DNA of 64,000 nt, from the NCBI RefSeq assembly GCF_000972705.2, contig NZ_LATL02000068.1:1-64000 (forward strand), written 5' to 3'. Made by a program: the position numbers and the translations under genes. Shown here one piece after another: positions 23,261-31,457 of this stretch (positions are counted from its first letter, which is position 1; every line of letters starts with the position of its first letter). Under the pieces are notes generated by a model, which was given only the letters and a program-made list of their open reading frames with translations, searched no databases and had not been told where the DNA came from. Source of the DNA: Limnoraphis robusta CS-951. Its GTDB lineage: Bacteria; Cyanobacteriota; Cyanobacteriia; Cyanobacteriales; Microcoleaceae.

Positions 23261-23773
23261 ATGAAACTGAGAATTTTAACCCTAACCTTGTTGCTACCGT
23301 TGGCTTGGACTGAACCGATTGTTGCCGAAATTTCACCGATGCAACAACCGGATGATTCTACCCCCCAAAACTCGATTTTAATTGCTCAAAATCCCTCTCT
23401 AAGTTTGGGAGGAGCGGCAGATTTAGTGAGTCGATGGTTAGAGGCAAAATCCCGCATTTTTGCTCCCCCTTTTGACCGTAGAACTTTAGAACAATTTACC
23501 ACAGGCGCATTGTATCGAGACACGTTAAAAGCGATTAATTTTTTGATCACAAATGATGGTTATTATGAATATGGTGTACAGAAACTAGAAACAGTAGAAC
23601 AGTTTGCTGTATCTGGAAACAAAGCAACTCTTGAAGTTCAAGTTACTGAAGATACAACCTTTTATCAGAATGGGAAAGTTCAAGATAGTAGCTTTAATAC
23701 AAAGCGCATCCGCTATAAATTAGAGTGTTGGGATGGAATTTGGAAGATCGCTGATTTTCAAGTCATTAACTAA
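23261..23773 (+). CDS. exported IMS-domain (ARC6-like, DUF4101) protein
   Basis: A 170-residue protein with an N-terminal signal peptide (MKLRILTLTLLLPLAWTEPIVAE). After a short linker, the ARC6-like IMS domain spans about residues 50-170: AADLVSRWLEAKSRIFAPPFD, LYRDTLKAINFLITNDGYYEYG, ATLEVQVTEDTTFYQNGK and IWKIADFQV. The same domain forms the intermembrane part of the chloroplast division protein ARC6 (Ftn2 in cyanobacteria), but stand-alone secreted forms have no known role. There is no J-domain, so this is not Ftn2. Confidence 0.82.
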   Translation: MKLRILTLTLLLPLAWTEPIVAEISPMQQPDDSTPQNSILIAQNPSLSLGGAADLVSRWLEAKSRIFAPPFDRRTLEQFTTGALYRDTLKAINFLITNDGYYEYGVQKLETVEQFAVSGNKATLEVQVTEDTTFYQNGKVQDSSFNTKRIRYKLECWDGIWKIADFQVIN

Positions 23774-23983
23774 AGTCAGTTTTCCAACTACTTTTTGGGG
23801 TGCTTTGAATGGAAAATAAGACGATATCTTGAGCCATTCCATATTTTTGGCTTGATTGTAGATGTTTGATCAGCTTAAATATTATTGATTGTTATTGGGA
23901 AGATCTCTAGCTTCAATCTTTTGTGGCTAAACTGCTGTTTGGTACCGATTTCCAGTTTAGAGATCGTTCCCGCTAGAGGTTAG

Positions 23984-24085
23984 ATACGAGATGAACAGGG
24001 AAATGTTATTCTTGTGGGTTATAACCCCAATCAAACCGAAGTTCATCGACAAATTAACACTCAATTTCTGCAATTTAAACCTTAA
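23984..24085 (+). pseudogene. short C-terminal relic of an unidentified gene
   Basis: In the 335-bp gap between the IMS gene and zorC, one frame reads DEQGNVILVGYNPNQTEVHR and continues QINTQFLQFKP to a TAA at 24083. It has coding-like composition but is preceded at once by a TAG and has no start of its own. It looks like the tail of a lost gene whose front was removed when this region was rearranged. The parent family is not recognised. The rest of the gap (23774-23983) shows nothing I can name. Confidence 0.35.
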
Positions 24086-24108
24086 TACTATCTAATAGTA
24101 TCTCACAA

Positions 24109-24453
24109 TTACGCTAACGTTTTCAAGTCTTTTTGCCACTGTTTTAACTGTAAATCTCGTTCTTTTTGTTTATTGGGTTCGGGGGGGCGCAGTCCTGTTT
24201 TCCGGTCATATTTCCCATAGTATTGCAACATTCCTTGAAAACATTGAACATCTGCATTCGGATAAATTTTCTTTGCGGCTAACCACCTTTCACAGGAACT
24301 TTGCCAAAAAACAACATGATCGTGAATGTCACCCCCTAGTTTTCGCAGGTGTTGAATCGTCGGTTGTTTTAAGTTAAAAAGCACTCGTTCATGTTCTTTA
24401 TTTTTAGGAATTAACCGAGCTTCACAGCCAACTCCCTGCAAAAATTCTATCAC
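24109..24453 (-). CDS. zorC: C-terminal part of a ZorC-like EH-signature protein, separated by a frameshift
   Basis: A 114-residue ORF opening at a GTG inside the 3' end of the upstream ORF (32-bp overlap). Read back through the overlap, this frame gives YFVIEFLQGVGCEARLI, which continues naturally from the LDFG at the end of the other frame. It then carries LRKLGGDIHDHVVFWQ and SCERWLAAKKIYP, consistent with the conserved His/Trp end of the EH-signature domain found in ZorC. I therefore treat it as the displaced tail of zorC, not an independent gene. One extra base, or two missing, near 24460 would explain the split. It is the last recognisable part of the zor operon; no zorD follows. Confidence 0.55.
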   Translation of the reverse strand: MIEFLQGVGCEARLIPKNKEHERVLFNLKQPTIQHLRKLGGDIHDHVVFWQSSCERWLAAKKIYPNADVQCFQGMLQYYGKYDRKTGLRPPEPNKQKERDLQLKQWQKDLKTLA

Positions 24454-25576
24454 AAAATATCCCGAAATCTAAGATGATCACTTCAGTTTCGTTGGGACAG
24501 GTTTTGAAAATATCACAAGATAAATCACCCCGTTGATAACCCAGGCGATCAAAAGAACTTTGGGGTAAGAGTAGACGAACTCGCCGAATACTGTCACTAT
24601 AATTTCCCCAAAAATTCTGTCGTTCTTCTAACTGTTTTCTGTCAAATTCTGTCGGTTGTAAAAATCTTAAAATTAAGTCAATCAATCTCTGAATATAATG
24701 ATAATTCAGCGCACCGATCCAACGGTTGAGACTATTTTGAGCGGGTTCAGACAGTTGATCGAGTTGAGTTGAATATTCATCTTTTAGCCATTCAATCAAC
24801 TTGGGACGGTGATTTTTTAAAACGTCATCTGAAATTTGTGTGAGTAATATTTCAACAGTTGCAAGTTTTTGTTGAGGCGACATCTGTTGGAGACATCGCA
24901 GCATCCATTCCACACCCGAACGATCAGAAACATTATTTTTAACAAAAATTTGACCCACACAATTCAGCGTGAGTTCAATGACAGGAAGGGAAACAGGTAA
25001 TTGCGCTTTTTCAAGGAGTTCTTGAGGTGTTTTTCCATATTTCCAGCTTAAGTTTGCGATCTCATAATCAATTTCACCTTGAGAAATGGTTTTGAGGATT
25101 TGTATGGATAAAGCATCTCCAGACGTCGCAGTTAAACTCCAGTCTAGAAATGCTGTAATTAAACTTTCAGCAATCACTGGAAACGGGATATTTTGTGATG
25201 TTACTAACTCTTTTTTGCTTTGGTAATAAAGTCCAATTCGCCAAAAAAGTAGCTGTTTTAACCAATCTGCTAACAAGAAATCTTCACTAATCCCTTGCCA
25301 AATAATTTGTGATATTTTTTTACTTTTTTCTGGATACTCATGTTCCCATTGAGTTTGTATCCAGAGATAATAAATCCATTCTATTTTTGTGAGTTTATCT
25401 ATATTTTGACTTTCTAGATCAGCAATAATCTCATCTATAAAACGAAGTAATGAAGTTTCAAAACGAGGTAAATTCAGAGAAAATTTAGGTGAAATTTTAC
25501 TCACTAAATGCAGTTTATTCGGGGTTTCATCAGGTTGATTTGATGGAATTTTGATGGAGCTAAATTCAACAGTCAT
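24422..25576 (-). CDS. zorC: ZorC-like EH-signature protein, N-terminal part, frameshifted
   Basis: A 384-residue ORF, 15 bp after zorB. It is helical and Leu-rich; the C-terminal part has RQNFWGNYSDSIRRVRLLL, matching the arginine/tryptophan entry of the EH-signature domain. It then goes off-frame after VIILDFG, ending in a short unrelated tail (CDRIFAGSWL). Restoring the frame would give about 490 residues, near the roughly 560 of type I ZorC. Type I Zorya uses ZorC together with the ZorD helicase-nuclease as cytosolic effectors of the ZorAB membrane motor. Whether this strain makes functional ZorC is doubtful unless the shift is a sequencing error. Confidence 0.62.
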   Translation of the reverse strand: MTVEFSSIKIPSNQPDETPNKLHLVSKISPKFSLNLPRFETSLLRFIDEIIADLESQNIDKLTKIEWIYYLWIQTQWEHEYPEKSKKISQIIWQGISEDFLLADWLKQLLFWRIGLYYQSKKELVTSQNIPFPVIAESLITAFLDWSLTATSGDALSIQILKTISQGEIDYEIANLSWKYGKTPQELLEKAQLPVSLPVIELTLNCVGQIFVKNNVSDRSGVEWMLRCLQQMSPQQKLATVEILLTQISDDVLKNHRPKLIEWLKDEYSTQLDQLSEPAQNSLNRWIGALNYHYIQRLIDLILRFLQPTEFDRKQLEERQNFWGNYSDSIRRVRLLLPQSSFDRLGYQRGDLSCDIFKTCPNETEVIILDFGIFCDRIFAGSWL

Positions 25577-25591
25577 CGATTTATTTCCTTT

Positions 25592-26308
25592 TTACTTTGA
25601 ATCCAGACTTAAACTCTCACGACGGAATTGAAAACGGAACGTCACTTTGCGATCGCCTGAATTATCTTGAGTTTGATCAGCATCAATTTCCCCCCGACCT
25701 GAAACTAAAATTTTATTTTGAAATTGTGGTTTTTGAGTAAAAGATAGCTCATTCGATAAGATATAATTAGAAACAGCTAAAGCACGCTCTAAACTCAATT
25801 GCATATTGCGAGTTGGAGTTCCGGCTGAACTGGTATGACCTTCGATAATAATCCGAGCAATTTGTTCAGAAAATTCAGAATTAGAAAAAACTACCTCGCT
25901 ATAAACTGGGATAAATGCTTTTAAAAACTCTTTTCCTTCTGCTTTCAGTACCGAACTATTATCATCAAATAAAATGCGATCGCGAATACTCACATCTCCC
26001 GTCGCTGGATCAACTGTAAAAGTATCTTCAGTTCCAACTTTCCCTTCTAGCGCATTAATAATAATCTGCGGTAAGGCTTTAAACGCCTGTTGATATTGTT
26101 CTAACTCTTTTGAAAGTTTTTCGACCTGAGCCATTTTTTCATCAAGCTTTTTTACATAATCATTCAGTTGAACTTGTACAGTAATAAACAATAGCGCAAA
26201 AAACAGTAGCAAACCTGACATTAAATCCCCAATTGATAGCCAAACACTAGAATCTTGGTTATCTTCTAAATCTTCATTGGTTTCAAAATCAAAGCGATTG
26301 ATGTTCAT
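25592..26308 (-). CDS. zorB: ZorB-like motor stator protein with OmpA/MotB domain
   Basis: A 238-residue protein. One membrane helix (about residues 24-48) contains Asp28 in the SIGDLMSGLLLFFALLF segment, the position of the proton-binding Asp of MotB-type stators. A short coiled coil follows, then an OmpA-like peptidoglycan-binding domain with IRDRILFDDNSSVL, IIIEGHTSSAG and LSLERALAVSNYIL. With ZorA it should form a ZorA5-ZorB2-type ion-driven complex in the inner membrane that senses phage at the cell wall. It lies 8 bp after zorA and 15 bp before zorC. A flagellar motB is unlikely in a cyanobacterium, and ExbD or TolR would lack the OmpA domain. Confidence 0.82.
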   Translation of the reverse strand: MNINRFDFETNEDLEDNQDSSVWLSIGDLMSGLLLFFALLFITVQVQLNDYVKKLDEKMAQVEKLSKELEQYQQAFKALPQIIINALEGKVGTEDTFTVDPATGDVSIRDRILFDDNSSVLKAEGKEFLKAFIPVYSEVVFSNSEFSEQIARIIIEGHTSSAGTPTRNMQLSLERALAVSNYILSNELSFTQKPQFQNKILVSGRGEIDADQTQDNSGDRKVTFRFQFRRESLSLDSK

Positions 26309-26316
26309 TTTTAAAA

Positions 26317-28518
26317 TTAATTTTTGGTTTGTTTGAGACTTAAATTGTCAGCAGAGGCGACTAAATATTGAGCCACTTGCATCAACCCATCAGAACTTGC
26401 TTGCAACCCTTGACAGACTTTTGCCATCGAACTATCGGCATCTGTAAAAAACTTATTTTGGGATGCACTAGCTTGTTCTAAATAGTGAATTAATTGTTGA
26501 TTTCCCGACTCCAAAGCCAGATTAAATTGACTAACTAGATTCTGATAAACACTCTCAACTTGCTGTACTTGTTCTTGTTCAGCTTGCAAAGAAATGTGCA
26601 ATTGTTCAACTAAGTTTGTATAAGTATTTTCGAGTCGTTTTCCTTCAGTATTTAACTGTTCAACTAACTTTTCATAAACAGTTTCTACCCGTTTTACTTC
26701 CTCAGCAGTGATCTTCGCCAGTTCTTGTAATTGAGCCATGCGATCGCTCGCATTTAACCCAACAGAATTAGCATATTCACTCACTTCTTTTGCCGTTTTT
26801 AAAACAATTGCCATGCTTTCATCAACTTGTTGCGACATCAATTGTCGCTTTTCTGACTCCTCTTGAAATACCCGTTGCAATGCAACGACAACTTGAGCTA
26901 GACCTTTTTGTTGCTTTCCAAGTGTTCCCTCTAATAAGTTATTTTGTTCTTCAAAGAAATGTTGCAGAGAAACCTGATAACCAATGCGAAACCTTTCTAA
27001 TTCTTCCTGTACCGTTAAGCGCGTATTTTGTAGCATTGTATCTACATTTTGCAAACTCCCGACTAAATTTTCTTGAGCTTGGTTCATCAGTTGAGATGCT
27101 TCTTCTCCGACGGCTTTAATCGTATTCGATTGAGTTTGAAACGCATTGTGAGTTGCTGTTAAAATTTTCGTCATGCGTTGCTGCACTTGTTCAAGCATTT
27201 GTTGTTCTTGTTCAGCTTGAGTTTGCAAAGCGAATTGCAGGTTTTCTTTAATTCCTCTAAACGTATTCGCCGCATCTTCAGCACTAGCTTGAAACGCAAT
27301 TCTTTGTGCTTTCATTCCCTCAATACTTTCTGCAACTCCTGATCGAATTTCCAGAGAAACTTGCTGTAAAACTCCTTGAGTATCGCTTTGAAATTCTCCT
27401 AAAATACTTTGCAATGAACCTGCAAAAGCTTGTAACTGAGTTAAGGTATCTTCCTGAAACGTTTGAATCGTTAAAATCGATTGGGCTAAACTCGCCGAAA
27501 TTCCCCCTAATTCACTTTTTAATTCTCGCACTGCTTGAGACGCTTCTTGAGTCAATTGTGCGCTTTGATCGAGTCGTTCCACAACAGGTTCAATCACTTG
27601 TATTCGCAGTTCTCGCAGTAAGTTATTTAAGATCACTTCACCTTGATCCGCTTTAATTTGTTTTAAGGTAGTTAATTCCTCCCGAATATCTTGAAAAATC
27701 GGTGTCATTGCTAATCCGACTTGAGTTCCAATGGCGTGAGAATCTACTCGATTTTGAGCTTCTATCAGTTGAGAAAAACCTGCTTTCATAATCTCTGCAA
27801 TATTCAAATTACCTTGAGAGTTAGCAGAGTTTGAGAGTTTAATTTGAGAAATTTGATCGAGTTTTTCTCGCAAATTATCTCTAAAATTTTGCCGTTTTCG
27901 CTCTCCCCAAGCCAGTACCAGCGTCATTAAACTTGCAGAACCTAAACCCATAAGTGAGCTAGAAAAAGCAGTTTTCATTCCTTCTAGAAGTAGTCGGATT
28001 GAAGGGAGTAATTCTGTGGTATTTTCTAAGTTTCCTAAACTTATATCTTGTAATCCACTCTGAATACCATAAAAGGTTCCTAGCACTCCAATTGCAATCA
28101 ACAAACTCGGTACAAATTGCCATTGACTTCGCGGAATTGATCGGGTTAAAAAGGCGGGATATTGAAATAAAATAAATTTTCTACCTTTAATTTCAGTTTC
28201 GTAGGTGTTACCTTGATAGGAAATTTCACCGATGAGGTAGCTGCTAAACCAGTCCAATAGTAATCCCCAGTTAGAATGAAAAATTTCGGTTGATTTTAAT
28301 TCGATTCGACCTTCAGGTTGACGTTCTAGCTGAAGTGATAAATAGGTGATAGCTTCTTGAGTAATCTGACTTTTAGCCTTTAGATAGCGTTGGTATTGCC
28401 TCACAAATCTATGCTCACCCCAAACAGCAATTATAAATAATATTAAGGTGCAAACATGAAAGAAGCTATTTTGCCAAAGGACAGAAATAAATGTGTAAAA
28501 AGAATTAACTAATTGCAT
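26317..28518 (-). CDS. zorA: ZorA-like MotA/ExbB-family stator with long coiled-coil tail
   Basis: About 733 residues from the ATG at 28518 (a TTG at 28542 would add eight). The first 220 residues have three membrane segments, the last two forming the MotA/TolQ/ExbB core: IAIGVLGTFYGIQSGL, then LLEGMKTAFSSSLMGLGSASLMTLVLAW. From about residue 230 to the end is one very long coiled coil rich in Gln, Glu and Leu. This length and layout match type I ZorA, whose intracellular tail transmits the phage signal; ordinary ExbB, TolQ or MotA are far shorter. It is the first gene of the operon zorA-zorB-zorC. The upstream 220 bp contain its promoter and the broken edge of a feoA gene. Confidence 0.82.
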   Translation of the reverse strand: MQLVNSFYTFISVLWQNSFFHVCTLILFIIAVWGEHRFVRQYQRYLKAKSQITQEAITYLSLQLERQPEGRIELKSTEIFHSNWGLLLDWFSSYLIGEISYQGNTYETEIKGRKFILFQYPAFLTRSIPRSQWQFVPSLLIAIGVLGTFYGIQSGLQDISLGNLENTTELLPSIRLLLEGMKTAFSSSLMGLGSASLMTLVLAWGERKRQNFRDNLREKLDQISQIKLSNSANSQGNLNIAEIMKAGFSQLIEAQNRVDSHAIGTQVGLAMTPIFQDIREELTTLKQIKADQGEVILNNLLRELRIQVIEPVVERLDQSAQLTQEASQAVRELKSELGGISASLAQSILTIQTFQEDTLTQLQAFAGSLQSILGEFQSDTQGVLQQVSLEIRSGVAESIEGMKAQRIAFQASAEDAANTFRGIKENLQFALQTQAEQEQQMLEQVQQRMTKILTATHNAFQTQSNTIKAVGEEASQLMNQAQENLVGSLQNVDTMLQNTRLTVQEELERFRIGYQVSLQHFFEEQNNLLEGTLGKQQKGLAQVVVALQRVFQEESEKRQLMSQQVDESMAIVLKTAKEVSEYANSVGLNASDRMAQLQELAKITAEEVKRVETVYEKLVEQLNTEGKRLENTYTNLVEQLHISLQAEQEQVQQVESVYQNLVSQFNLALESGNQQLIHYLEQASASQNKFFTDADSSMAKVCQGLQASSDGLMQVAQYLVASADNLSLKQTKN

Positions 28519-28739
28519 TTTAAATTTTAATTTTGAGGACAAAAATGATCAATGACAAAGATTAAAAGCTTATTTAAAAAGAGCTTAAATTAACTTCAAT
28601 CATTTTTAATATGGATTGAAATTTGGAACCCAAAAATGCTAGTAGCAAAATACAGGAATAGGCTAGTCTTTCAACTTTTGCCCATCCATAGCGATCAAAA
28701 AACAGGCAGTTGTGTTAACGATGAAACAATCATAGCAGA

Positions 28740-28820
28740 GAACTTCAGGTTTTAAGTACCCAACACAGTGGCTCTGTCGTCGTCGCCATTGCAGATAACC
28801 GCTTAGGCTTAGGGGCGGGA
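28740..28820 (+). pseudogene. truncated first FeoA domain
   Basis: In frame with the FeoA gene below, and uninterrupted by a stop, the sequence reads ELQVLSTQHSGSVVVAIADN and continues with RLGLGAGMAEKIMV. This is the second half of an SH3-like FeoA/DtxR-type domain. Its front half is absent: a TGA lies a few codons upstream in the same frame. Either a tandem-FeoA protein or a separate small feoA gene once stood here. The break point lies about 200 bp from the zorA start codon. Confidence 0.5.
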
Positions 28821-29200: not shown

Positions 29201-30646
29201 ATGGCAACTCGGAAACCGATTATTGCCTTAATTGGCAATCCTAACTGTGGGAAAACAACGCTATTTAATGCCCTAACGGGATCAAATCAACGCACGGGAA
29301 ACTGGCCTGGAGTGACCGTTGATCGCAAAGAAGGACAGTTTAAATATCAAGACACGACTATTACCGTTGTTGACTTACCGGGCGTTTATTCTCTCGATGC
29401 GGAAGACACCGCCACCGGGATGGATGAATTAGTCGCCCGAGATTATCTCCTCTCAGGAGAAGCCGAACTGGTAATTAATATTGTCGATGGTTCTAACCTA
29501 GAGCGCAACCTCTATCTAACGACTCAGTTAATGGAAATGCGCTTACCGATGATTATCGCTTTAAACATGATGGATATTGCCGAAAAAAGAGGCATTCAAA
29601 TCTATCCTGAACGACTCGCTGAACATCTAGGATTAGCCGTTATTCCGATTGTTGCCGCCGAAAGCAAAGGGGTAAAAAACCTGGTCGAAACCATTGATAA
29701 AATGTTACCCCATTTGACGCGATCGCCTCATTATGTCGCCTATCCGGCAGTGATTGAAGATGCGTTAAATGAACTCATCCCCTACATTACCCAACATAGC
29801 CATCTTCGCATCGTTGAACCCCGTTGGACGGCTTTAAATCTCCTGCAATGGGTTTATGTTTCTATTTCTCTCTCTATTAGAAGACTCTGGCTACATGGCG
29901 AGGGCGGCATTTGTCATGGATCGGGTGATGCGGTTTATTGGACTTCCGGGGAAATCTTTTGTGCCAATGTTAGTTGGTTTTGGCTGCAATGTTCCGGCGA
30001 TCATGGCAACGAGAACTTTAGAAAATTCTCGCGATCGCTTAATGACAATTATGATGAATCCGTTCATGTCTTGTGGGGCGAGATTACCCGTTTATGCGTT
30101 ATTTGCTGCGGCTTTTTTCCCCGTTGGCGGTCAAAATATTGTCTTCGGACTCTATCTTTTAGGGATTTTGGCGGCAATTTTTACAGGATTAGTCATGAAG
30201 CATACCCTCCTGAAAGGACAGATGCCGCAGAACAAGGAATTACCGTTGGAACCTTTGGGGCGATGGCGAAGCGATTTGATGGAAAAGTCGGAGCGTTTGC
30301 TTATTTACTGTTTGTATTATTGTATTTTCCTTGTGTTTCGGCAACGGCTGCGGTGTACCGAGAAACGAATCTAAATTGGACGGTATTTGTAGCAGTTTGG
30401 ACGACGGGAATGGCTTATATTGTTGCCACGAGTTTCTATCAAATTGCTCGGTTTAATCAACATCCGGTTTTTTCTGTCCTGTGGTTAATGGCGATGCTTC
30501 TCCTCAGTGGCGGAACATTATTCATTCTGAAGATGGCGCGTCCAGTCAGTCGAGTTTATCAACACAAAGTCGAAAAATGTGGAGGTTGTAGCCATTGTCA
30601 AACTGAAAGCTTTGAACTTTACGAATGGGTGGGAAAAAATAATTGA
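29201..30646 (+). pseudogene. feoB: feoB, ferrous iron transporter, broken by two internal deletions
   Basis: The first 210 codons encode an intact G domain: GNPNCGKTTLFNALTG (G1), TGNWPGVTVD (G2), DLPGVYSL (G3) and NMMD (G4). At about 29845 the frame jumps to the other plus frame, where [20 protein letters not shown] continues the membrane core and its gate motif. The region in between, roughly 100 residues or more in normal FeoB, is missing. A second deletion near 30210 brings back the first frame at [20 protein letters not shown] and the last membrane segments and Cys-rich end CGGCSHCQ. The 1446 bp compare with about 1.8-2.3 kb in intact genes. The long open first frame is partly nonsense. 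Membrane uptake of Fe2+ by this gene is lost. Confidence 0.88.
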
Positions 30647-30801: not shown

Positions 30802-31167
30802 TTAATCTTTCCTTTTTGACTTCCGTTCCAAATATTCAGAGAGTCGCTTAACCGCAGATTCCAACCCCGGCAAATAATTGGCGATCGCATCCCAAACTCG
30901 CTCTAAATCAATGCCGTTCAAATAATCGTGGACTAAAACATTTCTAAATCCAGATAATGCCCGCCAATCAACATCCGGCGCTTCTGCTTTTAAATCATCC
31001 GAAAGCTGTTGTGTTGACTCCGCCATTGTTTGCAACCTTCTTAATACTGCATCCTGCACCAAAGAATTATTCATAAAACTTTCTCGATCGTTGCCCGTAT
31101 AATCTCGAATGCGATCGATACACTCCAAAATATGCACCAAATAAACGCGATCGCGTTCCGGGTTCAT
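30802..31167 (-). CDS. hepT: HepT-like toxin (HEPN ribonuclease)
   Basis: A 121-residue all-helical HEPN protein (DUF86). The catalytic RNase motif R-x4-6-H-x-Y is present as RNVLVHDY near residue 81. HepT toxins cleave RNA and are silenced by the MntA antitoxin, which adds AMP groups to a Tyr near this motif. The gene overlaps mntA by 4 bp. Such pairs are very common in cyanobacteria. Confidence 0.9.
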   Translation of the reverse strand: MNPERDRVYLVHILECIDRIRDYTGNDRESFMNNSLVQDAVLRRLQTMAESTQQLSDDLKAEAPDVDWRALSGFRNVLVHDYLNGIDLERVWDAIANYLPGLESAVKRLSEYLERKSKRKD

Positions 31168-31457
31168 AACGGTTTTGCCTCGCTCAATACTCGTTCTTTA
31201 ATCAAAGGACTTAACCCTTGTTCCGTCACAATATCCACCCGACAGCCCAACAAATCCTGCAAGTCCATCAGTAGCCCACCCGGAAACCAAGGAGTCGTTT
31301 TTTCCAAATCATAATCAATCAAAAAATCAATATCGCTTGTTTCTTTTTCCTCTCCCCTTGCCACCGAACCAAACACCCGCACATTAAAGGCGCCATGTTG
31401 GGCGGAAATTTTGATAATTTCATCGCGTTTTTCTTGTAATAATCTCATTAATGACAT
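31164..31457 (-). CDS. mntA: MntA-like antitoxin (minimal nucleotidyltransferase)
   Basis: A 97-residue protein with the minimal nucleotidyltransferase fold. The motif GSVARGEEKETSDIDFLIDY holds the GSxARG loop and the two metal-binding Asp residues; a third acidic residue follows in CRVDIVTE. It should transfer AMP to HepT and so neutralise it. It precedes and overlaps hepT, and the order antitoxin-toxin fits this family. It lies 27 bp downstream of sbcC but probably has its own promoter. Confidence 0.9.
   Translation of the reverse strand: MSLMRLLQEKRDEIIKISAQHGAFNVRVFGSVARGEEKETSDIDFLIDYDLEKTTPWFPGGLLMDLQDLLGCRVDIVTEQGLSPLIKERVLSEAKPL

What the first reader, a model, noticed from the sequence alone, without database searches (positions are those of the whole stretch)
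24109..28518. Zorya operon zorA-zorB-zorC without zorD and with frameshifted zorC
ZorA (MotA-like core plus a 500-residue coiled-coil tail) and ZorB (stator helix with Asp28 plus OmpA domain) look intact. ZorC is split between two frames and the region where zorD should follow contains only a short unrelated relic. Either this is a dying type I system with a still functional membrane motor, or a Zorya variant that uses an effector encoded elsewhere.
Basis: partly seen in the sequence, partly recalled or inferred. Interest (0 to 1): 0.75.

Follow-up and report, generated by a model that had tools for sequence, protein, structure and literature searches.

The report
Zorya phage-defence operon lacking zorD
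A cyanobacterium carries the membrane motor and one partner of a known anti-virus machine but not its usual DNA-cutting partner; the same is true of its cyanobacterial relatives examined here, most of which carry a small undescribed protein beside it, so the machine probably works differently in this group.

Summary
zorA and zorB are intact, zorC is broken into two frames near 24453, and no zorD lies in the 64-kb window. The missing zorD is not a local loss: of 388 genomes in the order of Lyngbya aestuarii, 89 match this ZorC (13 only by a fragment), and none of 51 zorC loci inspected has zorD beside it; the listed genome-wide ZorD-model hits cover only the helicase core. Most loci carry instead an undescribed ~113-residue gene ('c3') on the same strand before zorA or after zorC (54 of 54 same-contig cases; odds ratio 91). 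c3 has a confident predicted fold without a clear PDB match. The window lies in a well-supported branch without c3. Its zorC break is very fresh or a sequence error: the C-terminal piece is 114/114 identical to an intact ZorC attributed to Limnoraphis robusta. In Lyngbya aestuarii BL J only relics remain. This is a ZorD-less cyanobacterial Zorya variant. How it acts is open: ZorABC alone does not protect in the Serratia type I system, and sampled neighbours are mostly not defence genes, so a non-defence role is not excluded.

The parts
26317..28518 (-). zorA: MotA-like motor subunit with long coiled-coil tail (start ATG 28518; an upstream TTG at 28542 is also in frame)
   Evidence: PADLOC ZorA1 981 bits; PDB 8vvn match over residues 142-229; closest relatives 64-68% identical
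25592..26308 (-). zorB: stator helix with Asp28 plus OmpA-type peptidoglycan-binding domain
   Evidence: PADLOC ZorB1 257 bits; Pfam OmpA; Asp28 aligns with Asp26 of 8qyd_F
24422..25576 (-). zorC, N-terminal piece (helical part, profile 1-372)
   Evidence: PADLOC ZorC1 279 bits; 348 of 372 residues identical to intact ZorC P0241
24109..24453 (-). zorC, C-terminal piece in another frame (EH-signature core, profile 375-486)
   Evidence: PADLOC ZorC1 120 bits; 114 of 114 residues identical to P0241 residues 376-489; holds the glutamate invariant in the 17 full-length ZorC compared
23774..24108 (.). gap between zorC and the ARC6-like gene; place where zorD would follow, no zorD present
   Evidence: no ZorD similarity in the window; next gene is an ARC6-like IMS-domain gene at 23261-23773
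28543..28820 (.). gap upstream of zorA; place where c3 lies in most relatives, no c3 present
   Evidence: c3 profile with filters off finds nothing at E 1 in six frames of the window

Best explanation
The operon belongs to a cyanobacterial branch of Zorya that does without ZorD. The ancestral unit in this branch is probably c3-zorA-zorB-zorC; the window lies in one sub-branch that later lost c3. Inferred mechanism: ZorB anchors to peptidoglycan and senses envelope damage, ion flow turns the ZorA tail, and the tail recruits ZorC. ZorC then holds or blocks the incoming DNA without a dedicated linked nuclease, or passes it to a resident host enzyme; c3 would be an accessory coupling or control subunit. 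Shown here: gene content, family membership, absence of linked zorD, association of c3, phylogeny. Inferred from work on other Zorya systems: sensing, motor action, recruitment. Pure inference: ZorC acting without ZorD, and the role of c3. In this copy zorC is split at the border between its helical part and its EH core, so unless the break is a sequence error the copy has probably just lost function.
Against: In Serratia Zorya I, ZorABC without ZorD gave no significant protection (Mariano 2025, PMC11890865, section 6), so ZorABC alone is not known to work anywhere. The c3-less clade shows that c3 is dispensable. Of 10 neighbours that I picked by hand, only 2 match a defence model at 1e-10: a protein kinase and a helicase four genes from zorC on the Nostoc plasmid. 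The ZorD genome search scored at most two candidates per genome and its match list was cut, so a divergent ZorD could be hidden; ZorD subfamilies also match each other's models mainly over the helicase core.
Confidence: 0.45

Rival explanations
1. The system is a Zorya defence whose nuclease effector is encoded elsewhere in the genome, for example a housekeeping SNF2 helicase or an unrelated nuclease recruited by ZorC.
For: ZorD is needed in Serratia Zorya I. Every genome with a zorC match bar G225 has a protein with a ZorD-like helicase core. In G001, G002, G211 and G271 zorC lies apart from zorAB, so the parts need not be linked.
Against: The ZorD-like core is as common in genomes without zorC (378 of 388 in all), and the two such proteins checked are sll1366-family helicases. 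No gene follows zorC in more than a handful of the 40 loci, and those that recur do so in alike neighbourhoods.
Confidence: 0.22
2. Not a defence system now: a Zorya-derived motor kept for an envelope or other housekeeping role in cyanobacteria.
For: A ZorC match in 89 of 388 genomes. Of nine chromosomal neighbours picked near zorC, eight match no defence model; they include an aminotransferase, an X-Pro peptidase, Met-tRNA synthetase, aldehyde dehydrogenase, Hsp70 and a photosystem II protein. ZorAB without zorC or c3 recurs in several lineages.
Against: Patchy distribution, different neighbours in most loci, relics and near-complete deletions (L003; L153 against L140), carriage on the Nostoc sp. 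HK-01 plasmid beside an ARMADA-like gene set.
Confidence: 0.2
3. A decaying type I system that lost zorD locally.
For: zorC is broken here; the operon is almost gone in Lyngbya aestuarii BL J; the feoB-like gene beside it is also damaged.
Against: No zorD in any of 51 relatives' zorC loci. The zorC C-terminal piece has not drifted from the intact P0241.
Confidence: 0.07
4. c3 is the effector that replaced ZorD in this branch, and the window's branch lost its effector together with c3.
For: c3 stands on the same strand close to zorC in all 54 same-contig cases, in two gene orders, in eight genomes where zorD would be.
Against: c3 is about 113 residues, with no Pfam, PADLOC or NCBIfam match above noise, no clear PDB match and no nuclease motif that I recognise. 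21 genomes have a long zorA and a zorC match without c3.
Confidence: 0.06

Closest known systems
Zorya type I (ZorABCD; Doron 2018, recalled; Mariano 2025, PMC11890865, parts read)
   Same: ZorA, ZorB and ZorC in the same order; PADLOC type I models for all three; a relative's ZorC model matches the solved ZorC 8r68
   Different: No ZorD in the operon; ZorC shorter (about 490 residues against 578 in Nitrosospira); most cyanobacterial members carry c3; NCBI's type I ZorC model does not reach the window's N-terminal piece or P0241
Zorya type II (ZorABE) and type III (ZorABFG)
   Same: ZorAB motor core
   Different: ZorC is present, and no ZorE, ZorF or ZorG match was found among the six window proteins scanned; c3 has no Pfam match above noise
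MotAB, TolQR and ExbBD motors
   Same: 5:2 ion-driven motor family (Mariano 2025)
   Different: long ZorA tail and linked ZorC

Membership tests
Zorya (any type) | ZorA: MotA-like core with long cytoplasmic tail | tested here: met
   PADLOC ZorA1 981 bits, best stretch residues 23-650; PDB 8vvn match
Zorya (any type) | ZorB: stator helix with conserved Asp and OmpA domain | tested here: met
   PADLOC ZorB1 257 bits, Pfam OmpA, Asp28 aligned with Asp26 of 8qyd_F
Zorya type I | ZorC (EH-signature protein) | tested here: met
Zorya type I | ZorD (SNF2 helicase, Mrr-like nuclease) in the operon | tested here: not met
   none in the window, none in 51 relatives' zorC loci, only helicase-core matches in the listed genome-wide hits
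Zorya type II | ZorE in place of ZorC and ZorD | tested here: not met
   ZorC present; no ZorE match among the six window proteins scanned, which are zorA, zorB, both zorC pieces and the next two genes downstream
Zorya type III | ZorF and ZorG beside ZorAB | tested here: not met
   no match among the same six window proteins; three c3 sequences gave no Pfam match above noise
Zorya (any type) | protects against phage | not testable with these tools
   no experiment; no held paper found on cyanobacterial Zorya function

The most novel reading that the evidence does not exclude
Cyanobacteria hold a fourth kind of Zorya, c3-zorABC, in which the motor and ZorC act with a new small subunit and no dedicated helicase-nuclease; the window represents a branch that has gone further and dropped c3, leaving ZorABC as a minimal set.
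Probability: 0.45. Interest if true: 0.75.

Novelty: new variant of a known kind. Interest (0 to 1): 0.6.

Why it matters
Current Zorya models end in a nuclease (ZorD or ZorE) brought to the DNA by the motor. A widespread branch with the motor and ZorC but no such linked nuclease would show that the motor-ZorC part can do something by itself or with a partner not yet known, and it gives a natural system in which to ask what ZorC does. c3 is a protein family tied to it that matched nothing in the libraries used here, with a confident predicted fold. Annotation that expects ZorD may miss or misname these operons.

Tried and rejected

Rows dropped: the ZorA tree used 57 of 70 rows. Left out before building were L111 and L115 (same genes as L067 and L001) and L039, L044, L047, L048, L050, L053, L060, L061, L072, L146, L149 (short or broken ORFs; L146 and L149 had also been given the wrong label, and L039 is a broken locus without c3 whose place is therefore untested). 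Of 28 genomes with a zorC match and no c3, 23 have a zorA match and 21 a long one; 12 of the 21 are in the tree, besides the window. Five have zorC fragments and no zorA.

The idea that c3 is a chance neighbour is rejected by its two separate positions in the operon. One of the 54 same-contig pairs (G354) is two short relics. Gene-by-gene order was looked at in the fetched loci; for the rest of the 54 it rests on strand and distance.

The idea that this region is simply full of sequencing errors is weakened, not excluded: of 14 Lyngbya aestuarii reference ORFs with a match (two of them weak or paralogous) only the feoB-like one changes frame; zorC was not in that comparison. Programmed frameshifting in zorC: P0241, P0242 and P0243 are full length, so it was not pursued. 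P0244 is shorter (376 residues) and its last part reads, by eye, as if out of frame at another place, so broken zorC copies may not be rare in this group.

Literature (open-licence library only): no held paper carries Zorya, cyanobacteria, ZorC and ZorD together; none carries cyanobacterial, Zorya and PADLOC; 20 hold Zorya and ZorA; 29 hold Zorya and cyanobacteria, 25 listed, of which I read passages of one (PMC12458937); 144 hold EH_Signature or Zorya, 20 listed; 'zorABC' occurs in one, the Mariano paper. Hu et al. 2025 (Nature), on the Zorya mechanism, is not held and was not read. Read: Mariano 2025 (PMC11890865) outline, passages, part 1 of section 6 and section 10; passages of the PADLOC paper PMC8565338, the MotAB paper PMC12505986 and the Druantia-Zorya preprint PMC13192584.

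Full report
What is there. On the minus strand, between a feoA-feoB pair (named by eye) and an ARC6-like gene, lie zorA (28518-26317), zorB (26308-25592) and zorC in two frames (25576-24422 and 24453-24109), with 8 and 15 bases between genes. PADLOC models name all of them as type I Zorya proteins; the two zorC pieces match profile positions 1-372 and 375-486, so next to nothing is missing between them. ZorB has the stator aspartate (Asp28, aligned with Asp26 of 8qyd_F) and an OmpA domain. There is no ZorD similarity in the window.

Is zorC dying? The three closest full-length ZorC in the protein collection are open: 491 residues (P0241, whose NCBI source is a Limnoraphis robusta MAG; the entry stands for 15 sequences), 490 (P0242, a Lyngbya species) and 490 (P0243). 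The window's N-terminal piece is identical to P0241 at 348 of 372 positions, the C-terminal piece at 114 of 114. A gene dead for long would not keep its downstream part unchanged, so the break is very recent or a sequence error; the unevenness between the two pieces is unexplained. The break falls between the helical part and the EH core; a glutamate kept in all 17 full-length ZorC aligned, two of them proteobacterial, lies in the C-terminal piece. In Lyngbya aestuarii BL J, which shares the flanking genes, only relics of zorA (residues 595-710) and zorC (130-175 and 244-274) were found. So in this small group the operon has been lost in one species and zorC is whole in others.

Is zorD lost here, or was it never there? 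A search of 388 genomes of the order of Lyngbya aestuarii with the ZorC model found 89 with a match, 13 of them covering less than half of the model. I fetched 40 of these loci. In 37 zorA, zorB and zorC stand together (zorA in pieces or shortened in four); in two zorC is alone, and one is a contig end. No gene follows zorC in more than a handful of loci. With two true ZorD proteins as queries (Nitrosospira and Polymorphobacter, where zorD directly follows zorC), 61 cyanobacterial loci, 51 with zorC, gave no hit. Genome-wide, the ZorD model hit 378 of 388 genomes, but every listed match covers only the helicase core with at most 380 bits, where true ZorD scored 1349 and 1396; two of these proteins were scanned and pass NCBI's cut-off for sll1366-family helicases. 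This search scored at most two candidates per genome and its list was cut, so it is strong but not complete. I conclude that this branch lacks a linked zorD as a rule.

c3. Directly upstream of zorA in 35 of the 40 loci is a gene of about 113 residues with no match above noise in Pfam, PADLOC or NCBIfam. Its profile finds 68 of 388 genomes; 61 of these have a ZorC match (292 genomes have neither, 28 only ZorC, 7 only c3; odds ratio 91). All 54 pairs on one contig are on the same strand and within 4.3 kb: 46 with c3 on the zorA side, one of these a pair of relics, and 8 with c3 just after zorC; in 7 genomes the two are on different contigs. Of the 7 genomes with c3 but no ZorC match I fetched 6: three have c3 beside zorA (one cut by a contig end), one is a partial c3 at the site where a relative has the whole operon, one is on a short contig, and in one my scan found no anchor gene. 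The database search lists 120 of 266 relatives, and those that carry an organism name are cyanobacteria. The predicted structure is confident (mean pLDDT 90): a helical hairpin, three strands, two short helices; neither Foldseek nor VIA-align gave a match that stands out.

History. A ZorA tree (57 of 70 rows; the dropped rows are listed under Tried and rejected) puts the two proteobacterial rows on a long branch away from the cyanobacterial ones. The c3-upstream form is spread over the cyanobacterial part (29 rows, 8 changes); the c3-downstream form is one clade (7 rows, 100/99); the c3-less form, which includes the window, is one clade (13 rows, 100/100). The simplest reading is that c3-zorABC came first in cyanobacteria and c3 was lost once on the way to the window. 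The root was set at the midpoint, so this direction is inferred. Six ZorAB loci without zorC and c3 need five changes on the tree.

How it works. In tested Zorya systems ZorAB is thought to sense damage to the envelope and recruit a nuclease (Mariano 2025, parts read). In that work the Serratia set ZorABC, without ZorD, gave no significant protection. So the cyanobacterial branch must differ somewhere: ZorC may act by itself, c3 may help, a host enzyme may be recruited, or the job may not be defence. I favour a ZorD-free Zorya at 0.45; a trans effector and a non-defence role each stay near 0.2.

Against a defence reading: of ten neighbours that I picked by hand (nine genes within about 2 kb of zorC in chromosomes and one helicase on a Nostoc plasmid), only two match a defence model at 1e-10, the plasmid helicase and a protein kinase; six of the others have metabolic or housekeeping Pfam families, one is DUF2887 and one has none. 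For it: on the Nostoc sp. HK-01 plasmid the c3-zorABC operon is followed by a BrxH/DrmD-like helicase, a methylase, a hypothetical gene and a DruE-like helicase, which I read as a set like ARMADA in the order reported for cyanobacteria (PMC12458937 passages).

Noticed in passing
window 29201-30646: The feoB-like gene next to the operon lacks two internal stretches and changes frame compared with the 783-residue Lyngbya aestuarii gene.
   Followed up: partly
window 30802-31457: A pair of small genes (121 and 97 residues) between the feoB-like and sbcC-like genes, which I labelled HEPN and MNT by eye; it is kept at 96-99% identity in Lyngbya aestuarii. The labels were not tested against a family library.
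   Followed up: no
L122-L137: ZorAB-like pairs, mostly with a shorter ZorA, without zorC, c3 or zorD beside them in several cyanobacterial genomes; six of them are scattered over the ZorA tree.
   Followed up: partly
L001 6831-7430; L067 11526-12143; similar ORF in L002 and one of like size in L156: A Y1-type (IS200-like) transposase gene sits between zorA and zorB in relatives of the window's zorA.
   Followed up: partly
L056, L057, L155, L157 (zorC); L001, L002, L156 (zorAB): In a sub-branch related to the window, zorC lies away from zorAB in the same genome.
   Followed up: partly
L043, L055, L074, L075: Two zorB copies in one operon.
   Followed up: no
L166 (Nostoc sp. HK-01 plasmid AP018320, 72000-105000): c3-zorABC followed by an ARMADA-like gene set on a plasmid.
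   Followed up: partly
P0213: A 768-residue protein listed with both the EH-signature domain and WD40-type domains.
   Followed up: no
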